Source: Cinclus cinclus
Lineage: Eukaryota > Chordata > Aves > Passeriformes > Cinclidae
Assembly (NCBI RefSeq): GCF_963662255.1
Contig: NC_085060.1
Coordinates: forward strand, 14,293,925-14,357,924
DNA: 64,000 bases
Direction of reading: 5' to 3'
Positions 7,325 through 62,208 of the stretch are shown here, in pieces. The position numbers were made by a program, and so were the translations under genes. Within the stretch, counting starts at the first letter, position 1, and each line of letters starts with the position of its first letter. The notes under the pieces were generated by a model. It did no database searches and was not told the origin of the DNA. It saw nothing but the letters and a program-made list of their open reading frames with translations.

Positions 7325-15442
<8,118 letters not shown>

Positions 15443-19553: not shown

Positions 19554-22155
19554 ATGCTCTGGGCTGCACGGGGATGTTTCCTGCTCTGGCTGCTCCCGTC
19601 CATCCTCAGAGCCCGGGCTAGCCCGGAGACGAGGCCCAGCTCCCCGCTGTGCCAGCAGGTAAGGCTGTTTTCCAAGGAGCACCCGGGCTGGGATGGCTCC
19701 AGCAGCGTGGCTGGCGCTGCCAGCATCCCTCTGGATCTCCTTCCTATGGCTTTCACCTCCCTCCAGCCTCCATCTCTTTAACTTTCCCAGCTTTTCCTCT
19801 GTTATCCCGCCTTGGAGCTTGTGTCCCGTGAGGTGGTCCCTGGCATCCAGCTGCTCCCATGTCTCTGCCATGCCTGAGGTGCTCAGAGGATGGAGTGCGG
19901 GGATTCCAATAAGGCAGTTGGGAGCCAGGATGGGGAACAGCAGGTTTCTGTCGCCCCAGAAAAAAAAATCAGCTGCTCCTGGATCAGTTGGATCCAGGTT
20001 CCCAACTCCAGAGGAAACCGGAGAGAGAGGAGAGGTGAAGCCTACACAGCACCCTTCCTCTGTCTAAACAGGGATGCTCTGGACCAGCTGGCCTTGGGAA
20101 GGGGGAGCAGTGCTTATTCCCACTTCTCATGCCCATCTTGGACAGCAGCTGGCTTGCCTGGAGCTGCGGTTTGTAGCCCCCTTCATTCACTCCTCTCCTG
20201 TCTCTCCACAGAGCCCCACGAAGGTGTCTTGCAAAGGAGTTGGCCTGCGGAAATTTCCCAAGGAGCTTGGCCAAGGAATTAAGTACCTTGAACTCTCCAA
20301 CAACTTTATCCAAAACCTGTCAGGTAGCAACATGCCAGGATTGGGGCAGCTGGAGTACCTGGATGTGTGCTTCAACCAGCTGGAAGCCGTGTCAGCCACC
20401 GCCCTGGCTCAGCTGCCTCGGCTGCGCTCGCTCCTCCTGGCATCGAACCACCTGGACCAGAATTACTTGGCTAATGGGGAAGCTTTCCATATGCTCAGGA
20501 ATATAGAGGTCCTGGACCTGTCTATGAACAACCTGGAGAGCCACATGGCCAGCTGGTACATCAGCAACCTCACCAGCCTGAGGGTGCTGTATCTCTCTGG
20601 GAACAGGATGACCAAGCTGCTGGCAGGGACCTTCCGGAACTCTCCGCAGCTAAGCCAGCTCGACCTAAGCAACAACTACATCTTGGAGATCCAGGAGGGA
20701 GTTTTTGAGCCTCTGGAAGAGCTAGAGGTGCTGAACTTGGCTTTGAATTCCCTCCACTGTATCTCTGGCTTCAGCCTCATGCAGCTGCGAGTTCTAAATC
20801 TCAGCCACAACGCCCTGGAGCTCTTCTCCTCCGAGGAGGGAGTGGAGCCCTACCTGCTCCGAGTGCTTGACTTGAGCCATAATAGACTCCTCTCTTTTCC
20901 AGAGCTCCCCAGAGCCCATGATCTCACACACTTAAACCTCTCCAATAACCTCATTGCTTCCCTGCTGCCAGGCTCACCCCATCCCAGGGAGTTAGTCCTG
21001 CTTTACAAGGAGATGCAGAGGTTCAACAGGACCGTGCGTCCCGTGGCCGCTCTGACACGTGTGGCTGACCTGGATCTCAGCAATAACCGCCTGGAGCTGT
21101 TCCCATTTTCCTTCTTCCACAGACTGAGTTCCCTGCACAGGCTCAGCCTGGCAAGGAACTGCCTCCAGGACGTGGCCAGGGGGTCTGTCTCCAATGGCAC
21201 GGAGCTGTCTGTGCGCTCATTGGACCTCCACAGCAACGCCCTCCGTGTGCTGCCACGCTGGTTCTTCGATTCCCTGCCTCACCTGGAATCCATGGATCTG
21301 GGCTCCAACAGCCTCCAGCCTTGTGAGAGCCAGGGAAGTGACCAGGGAAAGGATTTAGGGAGGGATTCTCACACATCAGCCCCCGCAGTCACCTGCACCC
21401 CCTTCTACAGCGTGCCTCGCTTGAAGCACCTGAGCCTGTCCAAGAACAGCATCTCCAGACTGCAGCCCCATGCCTTCAACCAGACCCCCCTGCTCTCCCT
21501 GGACCTGTCAGGAAACAGGGACTTGGCCATGGCCACAGGAGCACTGGGGGGGCTGGAGCTGTCCCTGCAGGAGCTCTCTCTGAGGGACAACCAGATGGAC
21601 GAGGGCCATGCAGCGCTGCCCTGCCTGGGCACGCTCCGAGTGCTGGACCTGTCGGGCAACCGCCTGAACCTGCTGCCCACGGGGCTTTCCTGCTCCCCAC
21701 TGGAGAGCCTGGACATTCGGAATAACAGCCTGCAGAGCCTGGTATCAGTCAGGAGCTGGTCTCACAGCCTGAGGGCTGTGTCTGTGGCTGGGAACCCCTG
21801 GAGCTGCTGCTCGCTGGGCTGGCTGGACACGCTGCGCGCGGCCGGCGTGGCCGTGCCGGACCTGCACCAAGCCCGCTGTGTTTTCCAGGAGCATGGCCGG
21901 AATATCTCGGCCAGCATCACCGGCACTCCCGGCTGGATCTGTCCCCAGCCCGAGGGCACTGCCTCCCTGGCTCTGCTGGTGGCCTTGATTGGCCTTTCCC
22001 TCCTCGGTGCCTGGGCTTTCTGCCTCCTGAGGAAAGGGAGGAAGGCTCCGGGATGTGCGGGACTCGAGAGAAACAGGGTGGGAATCTCCCAACCCCACCC
22101 CAAAGGAGAGGGGCCAGCCGAGGAGAGGCCACCTGACAGCATCACCAAAGTGTAG
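19554..22155 (+). CDS. LRRC32-like: GARP-like leucine-rich repeat receptor (LRRC32 family)
   Basis: Two exons, 19554-19658 (35 residues, signal peptide) and 20212-22155, join in phase 0 to give 682 residues; mammalian LRRC32 has 662. The protein has an N-terminal signal, about 20 leucine-rich repeats, a cysteine-rich LRR cap (WSCCSLGWL), one membrane helix (about residues 617-640) and a short cytoplasmic tail. GARP and its relative NRROS display latent TGF-beta on the cell surface through disulfides to the prodomain. The two GARP cysteines used (human C211 and C350) have counterparts here at C218 (NSLHCISGF) and C352 (ARNCLQD). The ATGALGGLE and LHCISGFSLMQLRVL stretches favour LRRC32 over NRROS. 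Neighbouring WNT11 and DGAT2 paralogues mirror LRRC32's human neighbourhood. Function is inferred; orthology to LRRC32 itself is doubtful, and a separate paralogue is more likely. Confidence 0.9.

Positions 22156-23210: not shown

Positions 23211-23212
<2 letters not shown>

Positions 23213-23254
<42 letters not shown>
23213..23254. repeat. Poly-T run (42 nt)
   Basis: Uninterrupted T tract in intergenic DNA; its length is prone to assembly error. Confidence 0.98.
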
Positions 23255-23255
<1 letters not shown>

Positions 23256-24442: not shown

Positions 24443-24490
24443 TAGACTTGATCTCAGAGGATTTTTCCAACCCTAAGGATTCTGTAAAGC
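24443..24490 (+). mobile_element. Short CR1 3' remnant
   Basis: The phrases 'gacttgatctcagagg' and 'ccaaccctaaggattctgt' match a diverged CR1 3' terminus. Only about 50 bp remain. Confidence 0.55.
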
Positions 24491-28560: not shown

Positions 28561-28718
28561 ACCTCATCCCTCAACCCCCTCCCAGGTGCTGTTTGGGGAC
28601 GGTCACTGCTAATGACAGCTGGCCCTCCCTCCAGCCCCCCTTGTCCCTAACCCTGTGAATGGCACCGAAACCGCCTTTGTTCCCCTCCCCGGGGGGCAGG
28701 ACCCGCCACCACCGCTGC

Positions 28719-28819: not shown

Positions 28820-31796
28820 ATGGGCCGCCCCGCCGCCGCTGCCACCGCGCTGCTGTGCCAGCTGAGCCTCTCCGCAGCCATCCAGTGGCTGTGAGTAGGG
28901 ATCTCTCCTTCCAGAGCCCCTCTTGGCGGTCCCTCGGGGCTCTGTGGCCCCTCCAGTGACCCCCACCTCTCCCCACAGCGGGCTGGCGGGCAGCAGGGTG
29001 GCGTGGAACGAGAGCCAGCACTGCCGGCTGCTGGTGCCGGAGCAGCTGCAGCTGTGCCGCCGGCATCTGGAGGCGATGCCCAGCATCGTCCGGGCCGCCC
29101 GCCGGACGCAGGAGCTGTGCCAGCAGAGCTTTGCAGACATGAGATGGAACTGCTCCTCCATCCAGAGTGCCCCCAGCTTCGGCCCCGAGCTGCTCACAGG
29201 TAAGGGGTGCTCCTCCCGCCGAGTCGCTGCTCCCGCTCTGCCCCCAGGAGCATCCCGTTCCAGGCTCGTTTCTGCCTTGGATTTCTGTTTTAGAGTAAAT
29301 ATCCTGCCTTTACGTGGTGTTAATCCCGTGCAAGTTCCGTCTGGGGGAGGTGACAGACTGTAACTTCCATTTCAAACGGCTGCCAGAGGCTCCCAAAAAA
29401 GCGGGGGGAAGAGGTGGGAATACAGGTTGGACAAGGGCAGTATTACACAGGGCGCAGGTTAAAACGCAAAAATTGAGAGGTCTTTGGTTTATCCCCCTGC
29501 AAGACGAAATAAAGAAACTCTTTGCGCTGTGAGATGTGCAAGAGGAGAAGACTGGCTGGGCAGGGAGGAAGGAAATATTCCTGTTTTCTCCTCAGGAACA
29601 CGGGAAGCCGCCTTCGTGCACGCCCTGGCAGCGGCGGCCGTGGCCCAGGGCATCGCCCGCTCCTGCTCCTCCGGAGAGCTCCCGCTGTGTTCCTGCGGCC
29701 CCGGCCCCTCCGAGCCCCCCGCGCCCGGCTCCCGCTGGGGTGGCTGCGGGGACAACCTGAGCCACGGCCTCCAGCTCGGAGCAGCCTTCACCGACGGCTC
29801 CGCCAGAATCGGCGCTGGGAGCACGCCCGGGCTCAGGGCTGTGAACCGGCACAACGGAGCAGTGGGACGGGCGGTGGGTGCGGGACCCCCGGGATCTGCA
29901 GGTTGGGATGGGGAATACAGAGCCCACCAGGTCTGCTGCGGTGTGGGATGGGGTGTGTGAGCCCCCTGGGACTCTGCAGTGGGTCATACCGTGGGGCTGA
30001 GCCCCCCCCAGGACTGCCCAGGGGTGACACAGTGGGTGCGAGCCCCTGGGACAGATGGAGCCCAGCATCCCTCACAGCAGGGGAAGAGGTCCCTAACTTC
30101 AGGCAGCAAATGCCAGCCAGGTTTTTGGGACGTCCTGAACACCGGGAGGCCACAAAATGGCTAAAATGTGTGTAAGCAGACACCCTCCACACACACTGCT
30201 GCCCACACCCAGACATCCCTTTCCACAGCCAGCACGTCCAACACTTCACACCAGTATTCCCAGTTGTCTGATGTTTCACACCAGTACTCCCAGTGCTTCT
30301 TTCCACCCTTCTCACTGGAAACTGAGCTCGTCCTGTCCTGTTCCAGTTGGGCTCCCCAGCCCATCCTGCCTTTATGCTTTCATCCACTCCTGTTCCCCAG
30401 GTGAGGCTTGGGAAGCCTCCAGCCCCGCTGAAGGCTCCTCTGGGAAGTTCCCCAAGGATCAGGTTCTTATCAGAAGGGACTGAAGTAGGGCTGAGTCACT
30501 GTTTGTCCCATTATATTCAGCTCTGAGCTCTTTCATCCCTTGAACTTCCCATGGATGCCCTTGCCAGTCAGTCCCTGGGGTGGTACCAGGAGCGAGCAAA
30601 CTCACCTGTTTCCCTGTGCTCTGCAGGTGCTCAGTGACTCCCTGGATACCAGATGTAAATGCCACGGGGTTTCAGGCTCCTGCTCAATGAAGACCTGCTG
30701 GAAAGGACTGCCAGACCTGGGTGAAATAGCTTCTGACCTCAAATCCAGGTACCTGGCAGCCCTCAAGGTGACTCATCGGCTCGTGGGGCCCAGGAAGCAG
30801 CTGATCCCCAAGGAAAAGGATGCCAGGCCAGTGACAGAGATGGATCTGGTTTATCTCATCAACTCTCCTGACTACTGCACCCCAAATCCCCAGCTGGGCT
30901 CTCTGGGGACACAGGACAGGTAGGAAGAACTCTGCCTCTGATTCCAGGCTTGCTGTACCACTGGGTTTGAGTGTCCTGGGAAGCTGATGTGAATGGGCTG
31001 GGCTGAGCTTGCAGCAGGTCCCTGAATCCCTGTCTTTTGAGACCCCATCTGCACTGCTGCATCCAGATCTGGGGTCGCCAGCACAAGACAGGCATGGGCT
31101 CATTCAACAAGTCCCTGTTTGGCCATGGAGATGCTCTGAGGGCTGAGCCTCTCTGCTCTGGAGCCAGGCTGGGAGAGTGGGGGGTGCTCACCTGGAGAAG
31201 AGAAGGATCCAGGGAGACCTCTGAGCCCCTTCCAGTATTTAAAGGGGCTCCAGGAGAGCTGGAGAGGGACTTGGGACAAGGGATGGAGGGACAGAACACA
31301 GGGAATGGCTTCCCACTGCCAGGGATAGGTGGGATATTGGAAAAGAATTCTTTCCTGTGAGAACCTGGCACAGGGTGCCCAGAGAAGCTGTGGCTTCCCC
31401 ACCCCTGGAAGTGCCCAAGGTCAGGCTGGATGGGGCTTGGAGCAACTTGGGCTAGTAGAAGGTGTCCCTGCTCATGGCAGGGGTGGCACAGGATGATCTT
31501 TAAGGTCCTTTCATCCATTCCATGAGTCTACGATCCTGCTGCCTCCTGCTCTGAGCACACCAACTCTGGGAGAGGCCAGCGCCTGGGAGGGCAGGACCCC
31601 AGGCCCCACATCTCTCCACAGGCCATGCAACAGGAGCTCGCTGGGCAGTGGCAGCTGTGACCTGCTGTGCTGTGGCCGTGGCTACAACACCTACACGGAG
31701 GAGGTGCAGGAGCGCTGCCACTGCCGGTACCGCTGGTGCTGCTCCGTGGTGTGCAGGCGCTGCCGGCGCAGCCTGGAGAGACACGTCTGCAAATAA
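28820..31796 (+). CDS. WNT11B: WNT11-type secreted signalling protein (WNT11B)
   Basis: Five exons: 28820-28890, 28979-29199, 29596-29873, 30627-30919 and 31622-31796. Phases agree and give 345 residues (WNT11 is about 354). There is an N-terminal signal peptide, the ADMRWNCSS motif, the lipid-attachment block CHGVSGSC (palmitoleoylated serine, here S206) and a C-terminal cysteine-rich half ending ERHVCK. All 24 Wnt cysteines are present. It is secreted and would act through Frizzled receptors, in WNT11's case mainly in planar polarity and convergent-extension signalling. The protein is noticeably diverged from WNT11 (for example the residues after WGGC), as expected for the second vertebrate copy, Wnt11b, known from chicken, frog and fish and absent from placental mammals. 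A TATA box precedes it and a poly(A) signal follows at 32680. Confidence 0.95.
31190..31540 (+). mobile_element. CR1 LINE 3' fragment in last WNT11B intron
   Basis: About 350 bp of forward CR1 ('gagagctggagagggact', 'gaagctgtggcttcccc', 'gatctttaaggtcctttc') inside the intron between 30919 and 31622. Confidence 0.9.
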
Positions 31797-36686: not shown

Positions 36687-39600
36687 ATGATGGCGGAGGC
36701 GGGCGCGGGCGGCCCCCGGCTGCCGGAGCTGCTGGCGTTGGGGCAGCGGCTGTGGGATGAGCTGGAGTCCAGCACCGAGCCCTCCTCGGGAGCCCCGGCC
36801 GTGCAGGACAAGGTGCGGCAGGGGCTGGACGCGCTGCAGCGGGCGGCGGCCATGGTGGCGCAGCTGGAGCTGTTCAGGTCAGCGCAGGGGACGCGTCTGA
36901 GGGGACAGGGAGGGTCCCCGGGCAGGGCAGAGGTGGGACGGGAGCGGGACAGAATCCCAGAATCACTGAGGTTGAACAAGATCTCCTAGGCCATCGAGTC
37001 CAGCCTGTGACCGATCAGTGATTGTCATCAGCCCAGAGCACCGAGTGCCACGGCTGGGCGTTCCTTGGACACCTCCAGGGGTGGAGACTCCACCAGCTCT
37101 CCGGGCAGCCCCTTCCCAGGCATGAGCACCCTTTCCATGAAGAAATTCCTTCTGATGTGCCATCCTGGTCCGGCCTGAGGCCGTTCCCTCTCCTCCTGTC
37201 CCTGTTCCCTGGGAGCAGAGCCCGATTCCCCGGCTGTCCCCTCCTGTCAGGGAGCTGTGCAGGGCCACAAGGTCCCCCCCGAGCCTCCTTTTCTCCAGGG
37301 TGAGCATCCGCAGCTCCCTCAGCCGCCCCTTACAGGATGACTCCAACCCCTTTCCCATCTCAATTCCGGACTCCCTGCTCTCTCCCTCGCAGTGAAAACG
37401 AGGAGCTGGAGGAAATCGCCTCAGCCGACCTGAAATTCATGCTGCTGCCGGCGCTGCTGGGAGGCCTCACGCTGAAGCAGGTGGATCTGAGCAGGAGAAG
37501 GGAGCACCTGGAGAGTGCCCGGGAGCATTTCCTGCGCTTCCTCAAGCTCTGCAGGAACTATGGGCTGGGATCTTTCCAGCTACCCCCAGGCACTGCCGGA
37601 GAGGAGAAAGCCGAGAGCCCCTCGGTCCCCCAGGACCCTACCCAGCCCAATCTGGTGGCCATGGCCATGAGCAGGACGGCCAAAATTGAAAGGTGGGCTC
37701 TGTGCTGTGGGAAGGGCTTTGGGAATTACTGTGGGAGGAGCAGGAACCTGAGGCAGTGCAGGGTTGGACAGGGAAGAGCTTCCCTGGACATTGGAATAAT
37801 TTGGTCATAAAATGCTTATTTTAAGAGTTGTGGCTCACTGTTTAATGGGTAGGGCTTGGGAGGGGCGTTTGTGTCTCCAGTCTCTGGTTTCTGAGGAAAA
37901 ACTGCTCAAAAACTTACTACAACCTCTCTAATCTTTCATAATTAAACTTACATTTAGTTCTTTAATCACTGCTGGTAGCATAAAAACTTCCAAACTGAAA
38001 GTTTCCTACCAGTGGGTTCATTAGAGCTTGAAAAAAGGTGGCTGGTGCCTTTGGTGCTCTGGTTGGGATTTTGGCTACCAAGTTGCTCATTGTGGCATCA
38101 CTGAAAGGTCCAAGCTAGGCTGGACTTGGTTAAATTGTGTAGAAAAACATAGAAAATATACAATTTATATTCTAATTGGAAAGGGTTTCTTTTTTAGAAT
38201 AATTATTTTATGCTCCTTGTCCTCTCAGCTCTCAAAGGTTTCTTTGCTATTACTGTTCATTCTTCAGGTGACAATAAGTGAGGGAAGGAGGACACAAGGA
38301 TTTAGTTTGGCAGTGTTTTATGTGAGTAGTTTCCCCTTTAATAACGAATTCCTGAAAACATAAAAATAAATTTGCCCTGGAAGTTTATTATATAGGGAGT
38401 TCTTCCCTGTAATAATTAATTCCTGAATAGGTCAAAAAGTCCAAAAAGCCAAAATTATATTTTAAAAAAGCCTGCACACACAAAAGCCACCTGAGACAGA
38501 AGTTGGAAAAACATTTGTGTGACATGGAATCAGCTCAAATCAGCCATTCCATTGTTTTTCTCAGTTCTGCTTTTTTCCAGGAGACTGATGTTTCCAGTCT
38601 TGCCTTATTTTACCAGGAAGGCTTCAGTTTCCAAAGGTTCATCAGTGTTTAGGAGAAGAATAAAATCACTGAGGCCCCTCTGAATTAAATGTCATTTTAC
38701 AGCTGCTTTTAACAGATAGGAGAGGCTGAAATTCCAACAGGAATCAGTGGAACTTCCATTAAATTTGGTTGATCCCCTTAGAAAAGGTGGTAAAGGCACC
38801 AGGGCTGGGCTGCAAAAAATGATTCAGTGATCTGATTGTGCTGTGTTTGAGCTAGGTACAAACAGAAGAAGGAGCTGGAAAACAAATTGGCCTCCATGAG
38901 TAGCTCCGTGGAGAGTGGAACAGCAGATGAGGATCAGATCCGGGAATTTTACACCCTCCAGATCCAGAAATGGATCGGCACCAGCCTGGAGGAGATTGAG
39001 AGCATCGACCAGGAGCTGGTGATCCTGAGGAGCAGGGATGCAGCCAGGCAGGTGAGGGATGCAGGTGCTGTGGGATGGGCATGGGGGGATGAATCCCAGA
39101 GGAATTCAGCAGCAGAGTTTTAATCAGTGACTCCCCAGTTGGAACTGAGCTCAGTCACAGCATGAGCTGATGGGGTTTCATTCATTCTGAATTCTGAGCT
39201 TTGGGTTGGGCTCTGCTGCCACACGTTCCCCACAATCCCAGCCTGTGGAATGCTGGAGCTTGGGATATCAGAGCTGAACTGGGCTGGGCAAAGGCTTTTT
39301 TGCAGATCCCCAATTCTGAAGAACAACTGGATTTGGAAATTAAAATAAGAGCCTTATGGTTTCTGTCAAGACCCTTGTGTTTTCTGCAGCATGTCCCATC
39401 CGGGTGTTATCAGCCCATTTGGAATGATAGAACATTCCCACAGACCTGCAATCCCTATGCAGAGCATTGTGTCCAGGATTTCTGTGAGCTGGGATGTCTG
39501 CTGGGAACAGCAGCTCCTGGTGTGCTGGCACAGCCTCCTGGCTGTGGGGGGTCATTTTTTAGCACTGTAGGACTCAGCTCCTCCGAGGTGTCCTGGAGAT

Positions 39601-41283
39601 GCCCTGGAATGATGGGCTCAGAATGTTCCACTGGAACAATAAAAAACATCTCCTGCTTTGCTCTGAGCTCAGCTCTGGCAGCTCTGCTCTGACCCCAGCA
39701 GGTGGCACAGAGGCGCAGGAAGTGATTCCGGTACAGGCACAGTTGGAATTCCTGATTTAAACCAAATTCAGGCCTGGATTCTCCATCCTGTGGCGTTGCT
39801 CTGACAGCTGAGGTGTTTCTCCTCTACAAGGCCTTTAATAACTTCAGGATGGGAAGCAGAGGGGGAATTCTCGTCCCCTCAATTCCCTGGTGACTGTTGT
39901 TTGCATCCCCAGGCTCCAGCAGGTCCCCGTGGCCCTTCCCGGCCTGCCAGAACTCCAATGAAACCCTTCATCCTCACCCGGGATGCTGCTCAAGCCAGGT
40001 ATGGATTGGGATGATCCAACTACACTTTGGGGCAGTGCTCTCATGTCAAGCCTAAAATATTCCTTCAAGTGAAGAAATCCAGTGCACTTGGGTTTGTGGC
40101 CCCCTGAAACCTGTGCAGGAATTTTGGCACCTAAAGCACAGAATGGGATAAAAAACGGATTTCCTATCATGCCTGGGGCGTGATTTATGCTGAGTTTTCC
40201 ATGTATCAGCTTCAGTTCCCAGGGGTGTCCTGGGGCTACCTTCCCCTATCCCAGGGTGCTCCAAGCCCTGTCCAACCTGGCCTTGGACACTTCCAGGGAT
40301 CCAGGGGCAGCCACAGCTTCTCTGGGCACCCTGTGCCAGGGCCTGCCCCCCCTCACAGGGGAGAATTCCTTCCCAGTATCCCATCTAACCCTGTCCTCTG
40401 GCAGTGGGAAGCCATTCCCTGTATCCAGCCACTCCAGGCCCCCTCCATCTTTCCCTTGGGCACTGGAAGGCTACAACTGGGTCACCTCAAAGCCTTCCTC
40501 AAGCCCACCTTGTGATATCCTTGGATATTGGAGATTGGATCATGGAACAGCCCTGTGCCTCTTGCCTGTGTTCCTGCTCATCCCAGAGGATTTCACTGCC
40601 TGGTTTTGGCTGGTTTTGTCCCCCTGCAGGGTGTTTGGAGCTGGCTATCCCGGGCTGCCCACCATGACTGTGGACGACTGGTATGAGCAACGCCGGAAGC
40701 AGGGGATTGTGTCCACCCCACAGAGGGTTCCAGGTATGGAACAGGGATGGGAGCAGGGGATTTGAGAAGCCTCTTGAGGGGGGTGGGTGAAGAGGGAAGT
40801 GTGTGCAGGGTATGGAACAGCCCTGACTATGGAGTAATCCAAGCTTTATTAGGGACACAACTGGGTTAGACTGTGCTTGGCCTATCCAAGGCCAGGTTGG
40901 ACGGGGCTGGAGCAACCTGGGACAGCAGAAGGTGGCACTGGGTGGGCTTTAAGGTCCCAAGGCCAGGTTGGATGGTGCTGGAACAACCTGGGACAGCAGA
41001 AGGTGGCATTGGGTGGGCTTTAAGGTCCCTTCCAACCCAGTCCATCCCCAGGTTCTCACTCCTGCTGTCTGGCAAGCCCAGCTCCCAGCAGGGCTTTGGA
41101 GAACCTGGATCTTCTCCCTGTCCCTCTCCTCCAGCAGGTAAAAGTGATGAGGAGTTGCAGAAGCAGCAGCAGAAGACAGAGGAGGAGGAGGAGGATGAGG
41201 AAGCTCTTCGGAAAGCTCGGGACTGGGACGACTGGAAGGACACACACCCCCGGGGCTATGGCAACAGGCACAACATGGGCTGA
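36687..41283 (+). CDS. IGBP1: Immunoglobulin-binding protein 1 (alpha4, PP2A regulator)
   Basis: Six exons: 36687-36877, 37393-37692, 38856-39051, 39913-39998, 40630-40733 and 41138-41283. Phases agree and give 340 residues (human 339). Alpha4 binds the catalytic subunits of PP2A, PP4 and PP6, protects them from degradation and links them to TOR signalling and the MID1 ubiquitin ligase. Recognisable blocks are RLPELL near the start, [26 protein letters not shown] ([12 protein letters not shown]), [19 protein letters not shown], and the acidic tail followed by [22 protein letters not shown]. The ATG at 36687 is followed by a second Met codon; either may be used. The last exon has a NAGNAG acceptor (41131-41137) that adds or drops one residue. 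Introns carry CR1 insertions. A poly(A) signal lies at 41633. Confidence 0.98.
36948..37335 (-). mobile_element. CR1 LINE fragment in IGBP1 intron 1
   Basis: About 390 bp of a different CR1 subfamily, in reverse: 'atcagcccagagcac', 'ttccttggacacctccag', 'gaagaaattccttctgatg'. It fills most of intron 1. Confidence 0.88.
37693..38855 (+). other. IGBP1 intron 2
   Basis: About 1.2 kb of AT-rich, apparently unique sequence. No element is recognised. Confidence 0.65.
39052..39912 (+). other. IGBP1 intron 3
   Basis: About 860 bp of unique sequence; no CR1 copy or exon is supported. Confidence 0.65.
40225..40500 (-). mobile_element. CR1 LINE 3' fragment in IGBP1 intron 4
   Basis: Reverse CR1: 'ccaagccctgtccaacctgg', 'gcagccacagcttctctggg', ending in 'gggcactggaaggctac'. 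Confidence 0.88.
40885..41045 (+). repeat. Tandemly duplicated CR1 3' end in IGBP1 intron 5
   Basis: A CR1 3' piece of about 77 bp occurs twice head to tail. Each copy starts at 'aaggccaggttgga' and includes 'caacctgggacagcagaagg' and 'gggtgggctttaaggtccc'. Only the second copy continues into 'ttccaaccca'. The copies differ at a few bases. Confidence 0.9.
41131..41137 (+). other. IGBP1: NAGNAG splice acceptor of IGBP1 exon 6
   Basis: 'ccagcag' offers two in-frame acceptors 3 nt apart. Using the first inserts one extra residue before the Gly-Lys-Ser. Confidence 0.7.
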
Positions 41284-41638: not shown

Positions 41639-41659
41639 CTCTCTTTGTGCTGCCTGATT

Positions 41660-43000: not shown

Positions 43001-46000
43001 ATGAAAACCATCATAGCAGCCTGCTCCCAGAATCTCAGTGGTAAGACATTCCCAAAATGGGTTGGGATGGTTCCTGGTTCTCCAGCAATGTGAGGAGCTG
43101 GTGGTTGTCACTGTTGTCTGCTTGCTTGGGAGTGCTGAGGAGAAAAAGGGGGTGTTGGGAGCGATTTGAGGATAACTCCACAGGAAAAAGCACAGTTGCT
43201 TCACAGGGATGAAATTTTGGGAATGTTACACACAAGATGCTCCTGCAAATGCCAAATGTTGGCTTTGGAAAGGCTCCTAGTGCTGTGGATGGGGCTGACA
43301 GCAGAGCCCTGGGGGGTTCTCTGTGTCTGTGGTGTGGACATTGACGGGGCTTTTGGAACAGGAGCTAGGAAAAGGATGTTAAAAAGCAACTGTTTGGTGG
43401 GCACAAGTTAGCTGGGAAGAGCTCTGTGTCTTCCCTGGGAAAAAGAAGGGTCTGGGTTCTGCAGGTGGCTGGGATTTTGGGGATGTGTGGTGGGTGGAAG
43501 GGATTACTCAGAGCTTAGCATGCTGCATGGGAGAAAAGGACAAAAATTCTCCACTGGAAAAATCCCCCATGGGATCCCCCACAGGCCAGAGATGGCTTCA
43601 GTGTTTTATTTATTTTTCTTGTCCCATTCCTGGTTTGGATTGAGCTGGGAAGAACTGAACCAGGGGTTGGTGGCCCTCTTCTGACTCGGGCATTCCTGGC
43701 TTGGGGAGCCACATGGACAGGACTGGTCCTGTGTCCCCCTGATGGTCTCTCTGGCCAACATGCAGATTTGGGAATGTTTTCCCAAGGAAACAAGGCTTTG
43801 TGATGCTGGGGTGGCTCTCTGGGGTGGTCTAAGCATGGGGAACTTTGGCTAGGAGCACTACAGTGGCAGGGCTGGTGCCTCAGGCCTGTTTTGGGGAGCA
43901 GGGATGGGACCAGGCTTGGAGTTTGGATCCTGGCTTCCAGCCCGGGGAGGTTAATGGTTCACCAGGATCGGCTGGAGGGAAGGGGTGGCAGGGGGAGTGG
44001 AGTGGCCGCGCTGCCAGAGGCGTGGGACAGAGTGGGAGAGCCACCCCCAGCCACCCTGGCTCGGTCTTGCTGCTGGCCTTGGCACTTGCTGGGGCTGGTG
44101 CCTCCCTGCTGTGCCAGCTGAGAAGTCCCCAAATCCCCTGTGAGCCTGAGCCTGAGCCTGCCAAGGAGGGCACGGAATGGCACATGGAGCGAGTGGGATG
44201 TGCCGCTGCTCTTGGCCCTGCTGGTGCACAGAGCTTTTGGACTTGGTGCTCCCTGCTCTGGGGACAGCCCTGATTGCCCAGGGCCACCTCTGACATGGTC
44301 CAGAGCTCCCTGGAGATGAGCCCCCTCTGTACTACACTCCCATCCCATCCCATCCCATCCCATCCCATCCCATCCCATCCCATCCCATCCCATCCCATCC
44401 CATCCCATCCCATCCCATCCCATCCCATCCCATCCCATCCCATCCCATCCCATCCCATCCCTTCCCTCCTCCCTCAGCTGCCCATCCTTGCTATCCCACC
44501 TCCTGCCGGTGTCCCTGGGTGTCCCCCGGTAGTCTGGTGACCCCACCCACACACCAGCCGTGTTGTTTTGGGCGGGGGCCGCGTCCCCCTCTCTGCAGGC
44601 AGCCGGGCCAGCATCCAGACTGCCCTGAGGACGCTGCTGGCCATCCCCTGGCCCTCGCAGCGCGACGTCGGCTCCGTGCTCCAGCTCCTGGCCGTGCTGC
44701 AGTGGGTGCTCAGCTTCCTGCTGCTGGGTGAGTGAGTAGGGGGCTGCGGGGGATCCCGAGAGGGCCACAAAGCCGCTCACCTCCTGCCCCGCTCCCGCAG
44801 GAATTGTCAGCCTCGTACTGCTCATCTACCTGCTGTTCACCAGCCTCTGGCTCATCCCCGTGCTCTACCTGGCCTGGATCATCTTCGACTGGGACACGCC
44901 GGAGAAAGGTGTGCTTGCCGTGTCACTGCTTCCTCCATTCTTGCAGCAGAATGGGAGTGGGGTACCCCTTTCTCCATGTCTCTCCCAGAATATGGGGAGC
45001 TCTACATGCCCCCTGCCCCTTCCCTCCGCTCCCCCCATCATCAGCACCACGGTGGGAAGCGGGATGCAGCGGGTCCGCGGGAAGCTTTTCCCTTGGATCC
45101 TGCGGCCCGCTGCGCTGGGCTGGGCTGGGCTGGGCTGGGCTGGCTGTCATCTCCTGGGGCCCCTCCCGGCTTTGCAGGAGGCAGGAGGCTCCCGTGCCTG
45201 CGGCGATGGACCGTGTGGAAGCACTTTCGGGATTATTTCCCGGTGAAGGTACGGCGCCGAGACGGGGTGAGACCATCCAAAAGGAGGTGCCACCGTCACG
45301 TTCCCGTGACTCCTTTTGTCCCCGCAGCTGGTGAAGACACACGACCTGTCCCCCAGCCACAACTACATCATCGGCTCGCATCCCCACGGCATCCTCTGCG
45401 TCGGCGCCTTCTGCAACTTCATCACGGGCTCCACGGGCTTCGAGGAGCTGTTCCCGGGCATCCGTTCCTCCCTCACCACGCTGGCCGGGAATTTCCGCCT
45501 GCCCGTGTTTCGGGAGTACCTGATGAGCGGGGGTGAGCGGCGCCTGCCCTGCCCGGCTCGGGTGGGGCTCCGAGAGGGCCCTTGATCCCTCTGAGGGAAA
45601 CACGGCAGGGATGCCGCTCTGCTTGCATTGTGCCTGAGCGACAGCTTTACCTCGCACCCTGAGTGAGCTGCACTTTCACCTTGCTCGCACCTCGCCTACA
45701 CCCTGTCTGTACGGCTCCTACGCCTTGCCTGCTCCTTGTCTACGCCCTGCTGTACCCTCCACCCTCGCTGCCCCCACCCTGCCCTCACCGCACCCTGCCC
45801 GCGCCCTTGCCACCCCCTGCCCGCTCCCTGCCCGCAGCAGAGGGAGCCCTTGCACTGTCCTTGCCCTGGTCCCACCAGGTGCCATCGCTCGGGGGGGACC
45901 CTCGGCGGTCCCGGTCGGGTGCCCGGGCACTGCAGTGCCACAGTCCCGATGCTCCGTCCCGCCGCAGGGCTGTTCCCGGTGACCCGCCGCGCCATCGGGT

Positions 46001-46706
46001 ACCTGCTGTCCCAGAAAGGCACCGGCAACGCGGTGGCCATCGTCATCGGCGGCGCGGCCGAGTCGCTGTCCTGCCGGCCCGGCGTCACCACGCTCATCCT
46101 CAAGAACCGCAAGGGCTTCGTCCGCATGGCCCTGCGGCACGGGTGGGTCACCAGCACCGCCACCCCCGCGGGTCCCGGCGGTCCCCAGCGCCCCGTCACC
46201 ACCCAGCGTGTCCCCTCCTCAGGGCCTTCCTCGTCCCCTCCTTCTCCTTTGGGGAGAACGACCTGTTCCGCCAGGTGGTCTTTGAGGAGGGCAGCTGGAT
46301 GAGGAGCATCCAGCGGCGCTTCCAGAAGATGATGGGCTTCGCTCCCTGCCTGTTCTACGGCCGCGGCCTCACCTCCTGCCGGTCCCGCGGCTTCCTGCCC
46401 TACGCCAGGCCCATCACCACCGTGGGTGAGCAGCGGGGCTGCGGGTCCCCAGGGTGGGGGGTAAGGGGACGCTCCCGGCGGGTGGTGCAGGGTTGTGTCC
46501 CCAGCGAGCCGAGCGTGTCGCCACCGCGCTGACCCCGTCCCCTGCCGGCAGTGGGGGAGCCGCTGGCGGTGCCCAAGGTGGAGAACCCGAGCCGGGAGCT
46601 GGTGGATCGGTACCACGAGCTCTACATCCGTGCCCTGCTCAAGCTCTTCAATGAGAACAAGACTAAGTATGGGCTGTCCGAGTCAGACGAGCTGCACATC
46701 CTCTGA
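43001..46706 (+). CDS. DGAT2L6: DGAT2-family acyltransferase (DGAT2L6/AWAT-like)
   Basis: Eight exons: 43001-43040, 44599-44727, 44801-44908, 45178-45248, 45328-45532, 45968-46142, 46223-46425 and 46552-46706. Phases agree and give 361 residues. The ATG has a full GCCACC Kozak context and the N-terminus (MKTIIAA) resembles DGAT2. Two closely spaced membrane helices (about residues 40-90) precede the catalytic HPHG box at 134-137. Further family blocks are [43 protein letters not shown] and SFGENDLF. These ER enzymes transfer acyl groups from acyl-CoA to diacylglycerol, monoacylglycerol or fatty alcohol; substrate cannot be read from sequence. Position between IGBP1 and P2RY4 matches mammalian DGAT2L6 and AWAT1 on Xq13. 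A wax-synthase role in the preen gland is possible but inferred. No AATAAA was found close downstream. Confidence 0.94.
43041..44598 (+). other. Intron 1 of DGAT2-like gene
   Basis: About 1.6 kb, the largest intron of the gene. Apart from the pentanucleotide repeat at 44341-44460, nothing is recognised. Confidence 0.65.
44341..44460. repeat. (CATCC)24 pentanucleotide repeat
   Basis: Twenty-four perfect CATCC units, 138 bp before exon 2 of the DGAT2-like gene. On the minus strand it reads as an artificial Met-Gly-Trp-Asp-Gly repeat frame. Confidence 0.98.
45115..45143. repeat. (GGGCT)n short repeat
   Basis: About five to six units of GGGCT, 35 bp before exon 4 of the DGAT2-like gene. Confidence 0.9.
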
Positions 46707-48515: not shown

Positions 48516-49640
48516 TCAGCACCCGCCTCCGCTGCGTGCAGTCCCGGTCCCTCGGGTGACACTGGCCACGTGGCTGCCGTCCATGGCATTTTCTGTGAAG
48601 GGTGACACCAGCGCCAGATCCAGCGTGGGCATGGGCCGGAGGCGCTGGGCAGCCCCACGGCGCAGCCGCCCCCGGTACTTGTCCCCAGCCATGAAGTACA
48701 GGATGGGATCCAGGCAGCTGTTGATGCTGGCCAGGGGCCTCGTGATCTTGTAGGTGAAGTTGATGATGTTGAGGGTCCGGCAGTCGGCCTGGAAGTAGCG
48801 GGAGGTGTAGTAGAGGGTGCGGGTGATGTGGAAGGGCACGAAGCAGATGGCGAACACGGTGAGCACCACGATGATCATCTTGATGGAGCGCTTCTTGTAG
48901 GAGGGCATCCGGAGGCTGGGGCTGGAGAAGCTGGACTTGCAGAGCCGCTTGGCCATCAGGCAGTAGCACAGGACGATGACCAGGAAGGGCACCCCAAAGA
49001 GCAGGGCCATGACGGAGGAGCTGTAGTGCACGTAGTGGTCAAACTCCTCGGGCTTGGTGGTGTCGTGGCACAGGGTGATGTTGCCCTTGGAGCTGGTGGT
49101 GACGAAGATGAGGTTGGGGATGAGGCAGATGGTGACCACGAGCCAGGCGCCCATGCAGATGATGCGGGCCTGCTTGGTCTTCACCCACTTCAGAGAGCGG
49201 ATGGGGTGGCAGATGCCCATGTAGCGGTGCACACTGATGCAGGTGAGGAAGAGGATGCTGCTGTAAAGGTTGGCGTAGAAGAGGAAGCGCACAATCTTGC
49301 AAAGCCCTGTCCCGAAGGGCCAATTATTGCGGTCGGCGTAATAATAGACCAGGGTGGGAAGGGACAGGACGTAGAGCATGTCCGAGAGGGCCAGGTTGAC
49401 CATGTAGGTGGTGGTGGCGTTCCAAGGCCTCATCCTGGAGATGAAAATCCACAGGGCCCAGGAGTTGAGGGGCAGCCCCACCACGAAGACGATGCTGTAG
49501 GAGACGGGTAGCAGGATGAACTTGAACTCTTCGTTGAAGACACACTTTGCCTCGGGTGCTGCTGTGGTGTTCCCTCCTGGCCAGGGAGCTGGTGTCGGTG
49601 TCCACAAGGAAACTGGGAACATCCTCACTGGAGTGGCCAT
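48516..49640 (-). CDS. P2RY4: P2Y purinoceptor 4 (UTP-sensitive GPCR)
   Basis: A single coding exon of 374 residues with seven membrane helices. P2RY4 is a Gq-coupled plasma-membrane receptor for extracellular UTP (and in some species ATP). Diagnostic blocks are FKFILLPVSYSIVFVVGLPLN-type TM1, YVLSLPTLVYYYA, CISVHRYMGICHP (HRY in place of DRY), CHDTTKPEEFDHYVH in the second extracellular loop, FVPFHITRT in TM6 (nucleotide-binding His and Arg), YKITRPLAS in TM7 and DPILYFMAGDKYR. The first extracellular loop reads ADRNNWPFGT and lacks the RGD found in P2RY2, supporting P2RY4. I take the ATG at 49640 (ACAACATGG context); the frame stays open upstream without an ATG. An ATG six codons further in is an alternative. 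The N-terminus has an NTT glycosylation site. Confidence 0.97.
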   Translation of the reverse strand: MATPVRMFPVSLWTPTPAPWPGGNTTAAPEAKCVFNEEFKFILLPVSYSIVFVVGLPLNSWALWIFISRMRPWNATTTYMVNLALSDMLYVLSLPTLVYYYADRNNWPFGTGLCKIVRFLFYANLYSSILFLTCISVHRYMGICHPIRSLKWVKTKQARIICMGAWLVVTICLIPNLIFVTTSSKGNITLCHDTTKPEEFDHYVHYSSSVMALLFGVPFLVIVLCYCLMAKRLCKSSFSSPSLRMPSYKKRSIKMIIVVLTVFAICFVPFHITRTLYYTSRYFQADCRTLNIINFTYKITRPLASINSCLDPILYFMAGDKYRGRLRRGAAQRLRPMPTLDLALVSPFTENAMDGSHVASVTRGTGTARSGGGC

Positions 49641-49659
49641 GTTGTGCCAGCCAGACCTA

Positions 49660-52600
49660 GGGAGCAGTTCATAAAAGCGCACTAGTCACTGATCCCGACC
49701 ACTGTCAGGCACAAAGTGTGGAAGGGAGCCAAAGCTGCCAGATTTTCTCCCCCTCCAGGAGCTCCGGCCACTTTGATGGTTCTCTGGTTTCTCTCAACTT
49801 GAAGTGGGCTCGGCAAAGCGTCCCCTCTCAACCCTTGCGCTGACACCCATTAATCACCCATTAATCACCCCCTTGGAGCCAGCACAGAGCTGGGAGTGGG
49901 CTGGGGACACAGAGGCCCGTGCTGGGGACACAGAGCCCCTCTCCGGCCCCGCCGGGCACAGCCCCACGGCCGCCGAACAATGAGACCTTGATGAGCACCA
50001 GCAGCCCCCGGCCGGGGCCAGCGCAGCCTCTTGGAAGCTGCCTCGGCATAATTGGCACCATCCTGACAATGCCGCTGCTCCCGGAGGGCTCCTTGGGAGA
50101 AGAAAGGCGGGAGGAGAAGAAAGGCTTGTCTGGGGGAATGTTGCGGCCCAGAGGAATCCTGGGGGGACTGTTAAATGAGCCTTTGGGAGAGAGTGTCCCT
50201 GGACAGCGAGGAGCCGCTGGCTGCCGGGTGTTGTCCCTAGGGAAGGGATGAGCTGAGCCCTGTGGAGAGGAGCTGGAGCTAAATCCCAGCTCAAGGCAGA
50301 GTGAGTTCACAAGGCAGACAGGACGTTCCCTCTGCACCAGGATCAAAGGCTGGGATATGTGAACTCCCAGGAGTCGGCATGAGGATGAGCTGTCAAAGAT
50401 CAGAACTCTCTTCTCAAGGGAAAAGGGGGGATTTGCCACCACCGTGATGTCCAGCAAAGGACCACTGAGGGCCTTGACCCCTCCACACCCTCCACCATCC
50501 CTGGTGAAAAAATTCCTCCAACAGAGGATGGATGCTTGGGTGAGCAACCTGAGAGCAGGAGCTGCTGGTGGAGATGAGGGTGTAGCCAAAACTGGATTTA
50601 TGGAGGGAATGCTGGAGTATCTCCTGTTCCTTTTGTCTAGAGCTCTCCCAGGAGGTGATGGGCACCAGGGCAGGGGAGGGCTCAGGGATGCGTGGAGCTG
50701 GAGCTGGTGCTACAAGGTGGAAGGACACATCCTCTCAAGGCAACTTCATCCCTTGGCTCCCTCATCATCCCCCTCCTGTTTCCCTTTGCTCAGAGGATGT
50801 GCCAGCTTCTCCCAGCAGGAATACCCCATAGGGTGGATCTGTGGGATCATCCCTGCCACACCCTGCCTGGAGAGACACCTGAAGTTGACAGAGATGTTCA
50901 TAAATGATTCAGCAGGCAGACGGGACAGCAGGGGCCCCTCCAGCCATCCTCCTGGGGCTCTGTTTGAACTGTGGGCTGAGCTCCAGGCCCACATCCAGCA
51001 CCTTGTGGCTCCTGGCCTGCCACAGCTCCCGCCTTTATTGCAGGGATGAGTTCAGAGAGCAACAGGCAGGTCCTGATCAAACATTAACAGTGGGGAGAAC
51101 TTGGTTTGTTTTCCCAGAGCCAGGAGGGAAAACAGGCAATAGGAAAACCTGAGCTTGCAAGCGAGGTGCCAGTGGTGGTCCTGGCCTGGCAGCCACATGT
51201 CCCCAAGATGCTGAGGACATGAGGGACCAGGAGATTTAGTTTCCTCTTCCAACCTCTGAGTGCAAAGAAACACAAAGTCTTGAGCCTGACCAGAGCAGAG
51301 CTGCAGGTTCATTGCCCAAAATCAGTGTCCATGACACAGGTCACCAACCAATTAAGATATGGAGAAGACAGCAAATAGAAGTTAATAATCAAGTGTGAAA
51401 AATGCATGAGGAAATATCCTCAGCAGCTGTGGACTGTGCCTGAGCACAGTCAGCAGTGGGATTTAACCATTCCCAAGCACATTCCTTTGAGGATAACCAC
51501 CAAAATACAGAAATGCAGAAGAAGATGGCATTTGGCAAATTATATCTTAACAGGTTTCTTGCTTCCTTATCTTTGTCATGACCAAAATCAGTGATTGAAA
51601 TTACTGAATCACATCAGTCTAGCCTGAAGACATATCACCACCAGCCCCACTCTTATTCTTTGCTGACATTCCCGGCAAAACTACCCTTGGCCCTGGGCTT
51701 TTGAGGAGAGATGGAGGTGCGAGCCAAGAGTTGGGACTGATGGTTGGAGCAGGAGATGGAGGCACTGCAGGGGAAGGACTGGGAGCAGGGAAATGAGACG
51801 GAAGTTGCTGCAGGAAGAGGTGATGCTCTAGTTCTGCCCATTTTGTGGATATACAAGGAATGCAGAATCCCTTGCCCACAGCAGGCACATCCCCCAGGGA
51901 TGGTGTTTATGAAGTGGGCCCCTGGTTTTCCCCAGGAAGCAGCAGGAGATCCTGGAAAATGCAGCAATATCCATAGGCCAGTGGGAAGGGGCACTGGCCA
52001 GCCATAGGCCACACATTGAGGGCACATGATACCCTTGGCAGCTTTTCCCTGGCTCCTGGTCCTGCAGATGTGCCCAGCCAGAGCTGTCCTTTGGCCCCAC
52101 TGGCAGCACCAGTCCTGGTGGGATCTGAGGGCTCCCCCAGCCCTGGAGATTCATGAAGGGCTCCAGTAAAATGAAGAAATGGGACAACACCAGAGCAGAC
52201 TCTGCCCTGGAGCCAAGATCCTGCTGGTGGGACAGAATAGGAATTGTGGCATTTGGGATCATGGAGCAGCAGGCAGAAGTTCAGACAGGGGAGGTGAGAG
52301 TGGATTTTAGAGCATTTGCCAAGGGATGGGTGAGCCTGGGACTGGCTGCTGCTGGAACATGGGAAAAACAGGGCATTTCTCTTCGCCTAAGCCCTTGGAA
52401 ATTGCAAAACAAGGAGAAATTATGCAAAACATCCTGCAGAAGGACCCTTGTCCCTAATCGCCACGTGGTTGGTGCAGCCAAAGCTCTGGCACAAGGGGAT
52501 GTGACCTAATTCCAATCCTTTCCTTGGCCTGGAAGAGCAGCCAAGGCACGCTCTGCTGGGACACCTCCCCAGGGACATCAGTGGGGTCGGGTGTTTCCCT

Positions 52601-54030: not shown

Positions 54031-54043
54031 CAGCCCCTGACAC

Positions 54044-54049
54044 TTTATT
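54044..54049 (-). terminator. INPPL1-like: Poly(A) signal of SHIP2-like gene
   Basis: TTTATT on the plus strand, AATAAA on the gene strand, 128 bp after the stop at 54177. This places the end of the transcript right after the last exon called. Confidence 0.8.
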
Positions 54050-54176
54050 CTGGATAGCGATAGCAAAGGGAACCACGGGAGCTGAAAGTCCTCCGGGAGC
54101 ACGGTCTGAGCAGGGCAGATCAGGAGGCAGCAGCTGCTGAAGGCACGAGTGTGCACAGGGCTGGGCACAGCTGTCG

Positions 54177-60100: not shown

Positions 60101-62208
60101 GGGCTGGGAGAGGGATGGGCATGAAGATCCCCTCCGAGCATCACCATCCCATCGCCCGGGGCGGGCAGGGATGCGTTACCTGCTGTGGACCTGCTCCTGC
60201 AGCCTCTGGTGCAGCTGCTGCGGGATGTGGGTCCGGCTGGAGGGGGGAGCTCCGGGACAAGGCACCGTGTGCCCCCAGCCTCGGGCATCCTCCCCGTCTG
60301 TGGGAAGAGTCACCAGCTCAGCGGGACCCTCCCCGCTCCCAGCCTGGCACTGCCCCCGACCCCTCCCCGGCTCACCCGAGTCCTCGGCCGGCCTCGGGCG
60401 GTGCACGGGGTGTAGTAGGGGGGTCACCAGCCCGTTGTTGGGGTGCTGGTAGGCGCCGATCAGCTCGGGGAGGGTGCGGAAACACTTGGCTTGGATGCCT
60501 TGGATGGTCTGGGGAGGCAGAGCAGAGGAAGCACAATCACATCCCCTCCTCTGCCAGAGCAGCTCTAGCCTGCTGTGTGTCCAGTGGGTCTGTCCCTCAA
60601 AATGTGCCCGTGGTGAGTTGGAAGGGCCAGGTGGACACCGAACCCATGGAGTGAGGAGCATGGAGACATCAGCCTCCTTCGGCAGACCGGGATTCTCTCT
60701 GTGGATAGCCGGGACACTGTTTTTAGGGGGCAGAAAGGGCAGCTGCAGAGAGCTGGGTACCAGGAGAAACCCTGAGGGGGCATCGAAGGGGGCAGGGACA
60801 GGCACCATGGGGCTCGCTCTGTGTGGCCAGGCTGTGTGGTAGGAAGGGACAGCGTCAGGATGCGCTGTGCTCTGCGGAGCCTCGCTCTGCCGGCCCCGAG
60901 CTGGAGTGACTGCAAAGCGCCCGCATCCTGCAGCTGGTGCAGAGGACAAACCACAGGTGGATACCACCTCAGCGGGGAGGAGAATGAGCACCCCAGGCCC
61001 TGCACAGCTTCATCCTGCCCACGGCCAGCTCCGAGGCACCGCCCAGGGCAGGGGGTGCACCCTCCCTGCACCCACCTGCACTGAGAGCAGCCCCTCGTCA
61101 TCGGGGAGGATGCGGTAGGTGTAGACGTGCCTCTGAAACCTGGAGAGAGCGGGTGAGGGGCCCCGTTCCGCTGCCCACGGCACTGTGGCAGTGCTGGGGG
61201 CCCAGCCCTGAGAGAAACACCCTCCATAGAAAGAGGAACTGAGTGAGCATTTCTAGATTTAAATCATCACCCTCATCTCCGGGGCTGTGGGAGGATGTGC
61301 AGTGTCCCTCTGCTTCCAAACAGGCTGGGACAGCCCTGACTCCACCAGCACTCATTGGGGTACCCACAGCGCCCTGGCTTTTTGGCCTGACAGAGCCTTT
61401 GCCATGCTGCTTGTGGGGCCACTGCACAACCCTGCCCGTGCCACCATCCTGTGCCAGCAGCCTGGATTCTGGCTCGTGCCTCACACCCCCACTGCCCAAA
61501 TTTGCAATTTGTCTCACACAAGGGCCAGGCCAGTGAAGGAAAGGGGGTGCATCCTGCCAAACCTGCCCACACAGATGTGTGACAAGTAGGCAGGAAGGGT
61601 GCAGAGCAGGAAGGATGCAGAGCAGGAAGAGTGTAGGCAGTAGGAAGGGTGCAGGCAGCAGTTCTCTCAGGGGCTGCACACCTGGTTCCAGGTGTGGGCA
61701 TGGTAAGATGCCCCATGTTGGGGGCCGTAGCCCCAAAACATCTCCCTGTGGGAGATGCTCACAGGCCAGCAGCAGCCCAAAACAGCTCAGTGTGCCCTGG
61801 ATTTGGGTTATCTGTTCAGCAGCCATGGTGCTGGGCAGGGCTGTGGGCCCAGCTTTCATCCTGCTCCCAAGGACACGGCTCCACTGCCCTGGTCCGGGGG
61901 TCACTCAAAACCCTGGTGCCAGGGAGCTGCCACCCTGCTCACCCCTCTCTCATCCATGCAGAAGGTTTTTCAAAGAGGTTTTGGCAGTGCCTGGAGCAGG
62001 GAGAGGCACAGAGGAAGGCAGGCAAGAGACAAGAGACAGAAGCCACAGGCAGAGGCAGGGCAGGGACTCACAGGAGGCACAGGGCATATGCCCCCTTCAC
62101 CGACTCGCTGTCCCGCACCAGGAAGGAGCCGTCCCGCCCAGCCTTGGCCAGCAGCTCCTCAGCCACCACCTGGCTGATATCGCGGTGGTACCACTCTGCT
62201 GCCGCCAT
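54177..62208 (-). CDS. INPPL1-like: SHIP2-type SH2 inositol 5-phosphatase lacking SAM domain
   Basis: Twenty-five exons on the minus strand, 5' to 3': 62208-62072, 61139-61076, 60508-60376, 60297-60180, 60103-59972, 59824-59737, 59620-59534, 59387-59280, 59191-59077, 58891-58785, 58602-58500, 58094-57898, 57655-57538, 57429-57333, 57174-57036, 56958-56859, 56596-56508, 56267-56186, 56085-55996, 55913-55797, 55715-55627, 55469-55382, 55175-55020, 54913-54835, 54756-54177. All phases agree: 1,070 residues. SHIP enzymes remove the 5-phosphate from PI(3,4,5)P3. An N-terminal SH2 domain (FLVR arginine R32) is followed by a PH-related region, the 5-phosphatase (TWNMG ~396, FWFGDLNYR ~567-575, PSWCDR ~650-655, TSDHSP ~679-684), a C2-like domain and an NPAY motif (893-896). 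It matches INPPL1 better than INPP5D, but ends without the SAM domain of INPPL1 (1,258 residues). Confidence 0.95.
58185..58207. repeat. Poly-G run (23 nt)
   Basis: Twenty-three consecutive G, then CGGGGG, in the intron between exons ending 58500 and starting 58094 of the SHIP2-like gene, about 90 bp before the latter. It is a candidate G-quadruplex on the plus strand (C-rich in the transcript). Confidence 0.97.
60509..61075 (-). other. SHIP2-like intron 2
   Basis: About 570 bp, no element recognised. Confidence 0.6.
61140..62071 (-). other. SHIP2-like intron 1 (within coding part)
   Basis: About 930 bp. It contains a short tandem repeat at 61588-61659; the rest is unremarkable. Confidence 0.6.
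61588..61659. repeat. Imperfect ~18-bp tandem repeat
   Basis: About four copies of a unit like 'gcaggaagggtgcaga' with substitutions. Confidence 0.8.

What the first reader, a model, noticed from the sequence alone, without database searches (positions are those of the whole stretch)
19554..62208. A second copy of the human 11q13 gene block, interleaved with Xq13 genes
Reading the genes directly gives EDA, GARP-like, WNT11-like, IGBP1, DGAT2-like, P2RY4, SHIP2-like. EDA, IGBP1, DGAT2L6/AWAT and P2RY4 are the human Xq13.1 set. The other three, plus DGAT2-like and P2Y, each have their closest named relative on human 11q13 (LRRC32, WNT11, INPPL1, DGAT2, P2RY2/6). The simplest explanation is a block duplicated in early vertebrate genome doubling, with LRRC32-like, WNT11B and INPPL1-like kept in this bird and lost from the mammalian X.
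Basis: partly seen in the sequence, partly recalled or inferred. Interest (0 to 1): 0.8.

Follow-up and report, generated by a model that had tools for sequence, protein, structure and literature searches.

The report
Third copies of GARP, SHIP, WNT11
This bird chromosome stretch is the sister of a gene block that people carry on chromosome 11, made by a very old duplication, and it still holds intact-looking extra copies of a TGF-beta anchor, a lipid phosphatase and a WNT signal that people do not have.

Summary
Confirmed, with one rewording. The window (own genome: contig C18) carries EDA, LRRC32-like, WNT11B, IGBP1, a DGAT2-like gene, P2RY4 and an intact 25-exon SHIP-like gene. In the same genome all five shared families have a member on contig C5: LRRC32, WNT11, DGAT2 and INPPL1 within 15.33-16.24 Mb, P2RY2/6-like genes at 1.5 Mb; four of the five also have one on C13. 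So nothing moved: C18, C5 and C13 form a paralogon. Human and own LRRC32 group without LRRC32-like (100/99; bird-specific origin rejected, AU p 0.003). The bird-turtle SHIP-like clade stands outside amniote INPPL1 (96/98), but AU tests of a sauropsid origin are borderline (p 0.05-0.19). WNT11B and its loss in mammals were already published. A third GARP-type and a third SHIP-type gene were not found described in the held papers. Both GARP cysteines that bind latent TGF-beta are kept in 120 of 120 listed LRRC32-like proteins. Fish data for these two genes, and loss in mammals other than human, are untested.

The parts
10368..15442 (+). EDA, four 3' coding exons: 10368-10550 (collagen repeat), 11510-11563, 13844-13978, about 15362-15442; last exon not found, N gap 15443-15642
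   Evidence: 96-100% to recalled human EDA in the first three
19554..19658 (+). LRRC32-like exon 1, signal peptide
   Evidence: 35 of 35 residues as Catharus P0002, donor GTAAGG
20212..22155 (+). LRRC32-like exon 2: leucine-rich-repeat ectodomain, predicted membrane helix, short tail
28989..31796 (+). WNT11B, exon matches 28989-29201, 29595-29870, about 30624-30920, 31620-31793; signal-peptide exon not modelled
36687..41283 (+). IGBP1, exon matches 36687-36875, 37391-37696, 38854-39051, 39919-40011, 40616-40705, 41158-41280
44598..46700 (+). DGAT2-like acyltransferase (position of human AWAT/DGAT2L6, recalled), exon matches from 44598 to 46700; splice sites not modelled
48516..49685 (-). P2RY4, single open frame of 389 aa
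54177..62208 (-). SHIP-like SH2-containing inositol 5-phosphatase, 25 exons, 1067 aa; SH2, 5-phosphatase, C2 and NPAY present, no SAM found

Best explanation
The window is one copy of an ancestral vertebrate gene block that held LRRC32/33, WNT11, DGAT2/MOGAT, P2RY and SHIP founders. Chromosome-scale duplication, most likely the early vertebrate genome doublings, left descendants on C18 (this window, human Xq13 type), C5 (human 11q13 type) and C13. Shown: the same gene families recur on these contigs of one genome; LRRC32 and LRRC32-like split before birds and mammals split; the SHIP-like gene and INPPL1 coexist in birds and turtles; the LRRC32-like, P2RY4 and SHIP-like frames are open. Inferred: the split dates to the genome doublings; the human line lost LRRC32-like, SHIP-like and WNT11B from its X copy; LRRC32-like anchors latent TGF-beta on the cell surface through two disulphides as GARP and LRRC33 do; SHIP-like removes the 5-phosphate of PIP3 at SH2-recruited receptors, in this bird without the SAM tail of SHIP2.
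For: Own genome, LRRC family: window copy on C18, LRRC32 at C5:15.943 Mb, LRRC33 at C13:21.559 Mb. WNT11: C5:15.642-15.656 Mb, 85-88% to recalled human WNT11. DGAT2 at C5:15.375-15.390 and MOGAT-like matches at C5:15.33-15.35 and C13:17.66 Mb. P2RY2-like at C5:1.502, P2RY6-like at C5:1.473, P2RY1-like at C13:0.811 Mb. INPPL1 at C5:16.235-16.238 and an INPP5D-like gene at C13:19.505-19.512 Mb. The LRRC32, WNT11 and DGAT2 members follow each other in one order on C18 and C5, with IGBP1 between on C18. Trees; AU p 0.003 for LRRC32-like. Path lengths: SHIP-like to INPPL1 1.02 against 0.19 for mammal-sauropsid INPPL1 and 0.14 for bird-turtle SHIP-like. Linkage of LRRC32-like and SHIP-like, counted by hand: same longest-contig length in 20 of 24 bird species that appear with a contig in both lists (misses Notiomystis, Tyto, Climacteris, Acanthisitta, each with a scaffold under 130 kb). 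Function: Cys211 and Cys350 of GARP (PMC9152136 passage), like Cys201 and Cys345 of LRRC33 (PMC9411592 passage), are Cys in 120 of 120 listed LRRC32-like proteins (108 of named birds, 12 without a name) and in 12 of 12 tree rows. SHIP-like keeps FWFGDLNYR, PSWCDR and NPAY (motif roles recalled). PMC7674686 (passages) derives the EDA-bearing parts of human 3, 13, 17 and X from one chromosome older than the doublings.
Against: AU tests leave a sauropsid origin of SHIP-like possible (p 0.185 on 459 columns, where a second test did not finish; 0.051, 0.049 and 0.13 on 859 columns). The long-branch warning applies to INPP5D joining SHIP-like. By identity LRRC32-like is no nearer to own LRRC32 (33.5%) than to own LRRC33 (33.2%), and the three clades have no outside root. 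No fish or amphibian member of LRRC32-like or SHIP-like was seen: the lists stop at 120 hits. On C5, P2RY2/6 lie 14 Mb away and INPPL1 lies on the far side of LRRC32, so the order is only partly kept. WNT11 has no match on C13. PMC7674686 names human 3, 13, 17 and X, not 11, as the quartet. P2RY4 with human P2Y4 is unresolved in the tree, though nearest by identity (64%).
Confidence: 0.9

Rival explanations
1. A segmental duplication within sauropsids or birds copied an 11q13-type block beside EDA.
For: AU tests for the SHIP-like gene do not clearly reject it (p 0.185, 0.051, 0.049, 0.13); among the rows placed in trees the SHIP-like gene is in birds and turtles only.
Against: For LRRC32-like it is rejected (AU p 0.003). 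WNT11B is shared with fish and frogs by the literature and the window copy groups with recalled Xenopus wnt11b. The SHIP-like to INPPL1 path is about five times the mammal-sauropsid INPPL1 path.
Confidence: 0.05
2. These are simply the bird LRRC32, WNT11 and INPPL1 genes, moved next to EDA.
For: Databases name many of the bird genes LRRC32, LRC32 or SHIP2.
Against: LRRC32, WNT11 and INPPL1 are present on C5 of the same genome. In 9 of 9 species with both SHIP copies in the tree and contig lengths for both, the lengths differ; some of these pairs may come from different assemblies.
Confidence: 0.01
3. Independent paralogues came together by chance.
For: Gene order on C5 is only partly that of C18; the families are large enough that single coincidences are cheap.
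Against: Five of five families have a member on C5, 10% of the assembly, and four of the five lie there within 0.91 Mb; four of five also have a member on C13.
Confidence: 0.02

Closest known systems
LRRC32 (GARP) and LRRC33 (NRROS), cell-surface anchors of latent TGF-beta
   Different: A separate clade, 31-42% identical to human LRRC32 or LRRC33; never assayed; two such anchors are named for human (PMC9411592 passage)
SHIP2 (INPPL1) and SHIP1 (INPP5D)
   Same: SH2, 5-phosphatase motifs, C2, NPXY
   Different: Separate clade; the window protein ends without the SAM domain that database annotation shows in ostrich, kiwi, emu and two turtle rows; a review speaks of two human paralogues (PMC11121230 passages)
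WNT11B / wnt11f2
   Same: Same gene, already described in chick, frog and fish and missing in mammals (PMC3498729 and PMC9968865 passages)
   Different: Window copy is on a long branch (0.75)
Xq13 EDA-IGBP1-DGAT2L6/AWAT-P2RY4 block of human (order recalled)
   Same: EDA, IGBP1, DGAT2-like, P2RY4 present
   Different: Adds LRRC32-like, WNT11B and SHIP-like

Membership tests
GARP family (LRRC32/LRRC33) | LRR ectodomain plus one membrane helix | tested here: met
   LRR Pfam matches; model with a helix at 582-605
GARP family (LRRC32/LRRC33) | Two cysteines that bond to the TGF-beta prodomain (Cys211, Cys350 of GARP) | tested here: met
   120 of 120 listed rows; 4 of 4 own-genome copies
GARP family (LRRC32/LRRC33) | Sequence grouping apart from other LRR proteins | tested here: met
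   four family loci score 242-485 bits, the next LRR locus in the genome 76 bits
GARP family (LRRC32/LRRC33) | Binds latent TGF-beta on the cell surface | not testable with these tools
   needs an assay
SHIP family | N-terminal SH2, catalytic 5-phosphatase motifs, C2 | tested here: met
SHIP2 (INPPL1) itself | C-terminal SAM domain | tested here: not met
   frame ends at 54177; ostrich SAM tail finds nothing in the window
SHIP2 (INPPL1) itself | Falls inside the INPPL1 clade | tested here: inconclusive
   outside it (96/91, 96/98); AU p 0.05-0.19
WNT11B | Groups with frog wnt11b, apart from WNT11 | tested here: met
   87/90, five rows, one recalled frog sequence
Early-vertebrate ohnologue block | Several families recur on three contigs | tested here: met
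   5 of 5 on C18 and C5, 4 of 5 on C13
Early-vertebrate ohnologue block | Duplication older than the bird-mammal split | tested here: met
   LRRC32-like; SHIP-like only borderline
Early-vertebrate ohnologue block | Members in fish or sharks | not tested
   no fish sequences reached for LRRC32-like or SHIP-like; WNT11B from literature only

The most novel reading that the evidence does not exclude
LRRC32-like is a third latent-TGF-beta anchor of vertebrates, kept in birds and absent from humans, so that this bird has four genes of the GARP type (LRRC32, a second LRRC32 copy, LRRC32-like, LRRC33); with the neighbouring third SHIP it would give birds an extra pair of immune brakes.
Probability: 0.6. 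Interest if true: 0.65.

Novelty: new member of a known kind. Interest (0 to 1): 0.5.

Why it matters
Ohnologues hidden under names such as LRRC32 or SHIP2 mislead orthology calls: many bird rows named LRRC32 or LRC32 are the paralogue, while LRRC32 itself sits on another contig. TGF-beta presentation and SHIP signalling both restrain immunity (general knowledge), and birds appear to hold extra members that human-based models leave out. The block also shows what the human X copy may once have held.

Tried and rejected
Reciprocal loss (birds keep LRRC32-like, mammals keep LRRC32) was a reading I favoured until one search found LRRC32 on C5. Relocation of 11q13 genes: rejected by the C5 copies. 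LRRC32 within the 200 kb fetched around WNT11 on C5: not found (5000 N); it lies 287 kb from WNT11. The Arrestin_C Pfam search for the expected ARR3/ARRB1 neighbours gave five loci on other contigs, probably arrestin-domain genes, so it tested nothing. Recalled human ARR3 and the ostrich SAM tail found nothing in the window. PDB holds no relative of the DGAT2-like protein at E 1e-5, so its subfamily was not settled. No tRNA, no Rfam match. NCBIfam gave only chance-level LRR families for LRRC32-like and nothing for SHIP-like or P2RY4. Paper searches. Searches looked for LRRC32-like, a third SHIP or the block; no title or abstract shown describes them, but lists were capped (15 of 1,887) and only open-licence papers are held.
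Full report
What is there. The window is G000:C18:14293925-14357924 of a 1.17-Gb bird assembly; its LRRC32-like protein is up to about 90% identical to songbird proteins such as that of Catharus. Reading left to right: EDA (+), LRRC32-like (+), WNT11B (+), IGBP1 (+), DGAT2-like (+), P2RY4 (-), SHIP-like (-). The SHIP-like gene was modelled fully: 25 exons, all internal junctions GT/AG, no stop, 1067 aa.

Where the other copies are. The own genome is held and was searched with each family. LRRC32: C5:15942863-15944554, 50% to human LRRC32; a second copy C5:32298788-32300479; window copy 42%; LRRC33 on C13:21558955-21560619. WNT11: C5:15642470-15655928, 85-88% to recalled human WNT11. DGAT2: C5:15375124-15389983, 67-88% to recalled human DGAT2 by exon; MOGAT-like matches C5:15.33-15.35 Mb and C13:17.66 Mb. 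P2RY: C5:1502012 (60% to window P2RY4), grouping with human P2Y2 (95/100), C5:1473010, and C13:811048, grouping with human P2Y1 (100/99). SHIP: INPPL1 at C5:16235192-16238294 (71-94% to human INPPL1 by exon), third member at C13:19504560-19512385. Names beyond the sequence match (MOGAT, P2RY6, INPP5D) are my reading. So 5 of 5 families have members on C18 and C5, and 4 of 5 also on C13; none of the 64 Wnt matches lies on C13. C5 is 117,953,103 of 1,170,691,195 bases. The figure of 1e-5 assumes one other member per family, independent families and a contig named beforehand, none of which strictly holds; the 0.91-Mb cluster on C5 is the stronger point.

Trees. LRRC family, 12 rows, 665 columns: human LRRC32 with both own LRRC32 copies 100/99; LRRC32-like clade 97/99; LRRC33 pair 100/100. 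Holding LRRC32-like with own LRRC32 costs 22.2 log units, AU p 0.003. There is no outside root, so which two of the three clades are sisters is open; by identity LRRC32-like is as far from own LRRC32 (33.5%) as from own LRRC33 (33.2%). SHIP, 47 rows and 459 columns: SHIP-like (birds, turtles, window) 99/99, INPPL1 (mammals, platypus, squamates, tuatara, turtles, birds) 96/91; 25 rows and 859 columns: 100/100 and 96/98. AU tests of a later origin: p 0.185 (a second test there did not finish), 0.051, 0.049, 0.13, so topology alone is not decisive. Path lengths help: SHIP-like to INPPL1 1.02, mammal to sauropsid INPPL1 0.19, bird to turtle SHIP-like 0.14. WNT: window with recalled Xenopus wnt11b 87/90; own WNT11 with recalled human WNT11 only 55/67.

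Linkage across birds. LRRC32-like and SHIP-like hits carry contig lengths. Of 24 species that I found, by hand, with a contig in both lists, 20 show the same length, from ostrich (29,763,035) to songbirds, with contigs as short as 174,059 bases; four differ (Notiomystis, Tyto, Climacteris, Acanthisitta), each with a scaffold under 130 kb. INPPL1 and SHIP-like lie on contigs of different length in 9 of 9 species that have both in the tree with lengths for both; some of these lengths may come from different assemblies.

What is known. The second chick Wnt11 as a vertebrate duplicate lost in mammals is in print (PMC3498729, passage; PMC9968865, passage citing Postlethwait 2019; the 2019 paper itself and Hardy 2008 are not held). 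EDA regions of human 3, 13, 17 and X are traced to one ancestral chromosome, and a TNF gene, BALM, found in tandem with EDA in some fishes and near IGBP1, is absent in mammals (PMC7674686, passages); I did not look for BALM here. A SHIP review speaks of two paralogues (PMC11121230, passages), TGF-beta work of two LRR anchors. The third GARP-type and third SHIP-type genes were not found described (capped lists, titles and abstracts). Human gene order on 11q13 and Xq13 is recalled, from no call.

Verdict.

Noticed in passing
G000:C5:32298788-32300479 (L042): A second LRRC32 frame (668 aa open, 84% identical to the C5:15.94 Mb copy), 16 Mb away; looks like a lineage-specific duplicate with both TGF-beta cysteines kept.
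   Followed up: partly
window 15443-15642: 200-N assembly gap directly after the EDA exon ending QCTRS; the last EDA exon was not found, so it may lie in the gap.
   Followed up: partly
window 54177-54756: SHIP-like tail ends without SAM; among the 120 hits SAM is listed only for ostrich, kiwi, emu and two turtle rows, which suggests loss in neognath birds.
   Followed up: partly
window 44338-44466: Pentamer array TCCCA, 25.8 copies at 99% match, 132 bases upstream of the first DGAT2-like exon match.
   Followed up: no
window, translated fragments near 1.5k, 9.5k, 13.5k, 16.4k, 31k, 35.5k, 40.3k: Recurring similar fragments that look like an interspersed repeat, perhaps CR1; identity recalled, not tested.
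   Followed up: no
G000:C18:14470787-14589407: Five further P2Y-like receptor frames 113-231 kb beyond the window, like the human Xq21 receptor cluster (recalled).
   Followed up: no
window 28989-31796 and 54177-62208: WNT11B (end branch 0.75 against 0.05 for own WNT11) and songbird SHIP-like (branch 0.087) evolve fast; the 44-64 kb part is GC-rich (0.54-0.68 per 2 kb).
   Followed up: no
Galliform birds appear in the SHIP-like list but I saw none among the 120 LRRC32-like hits; may be the rank cut-off or a loss.
   Followed up: no
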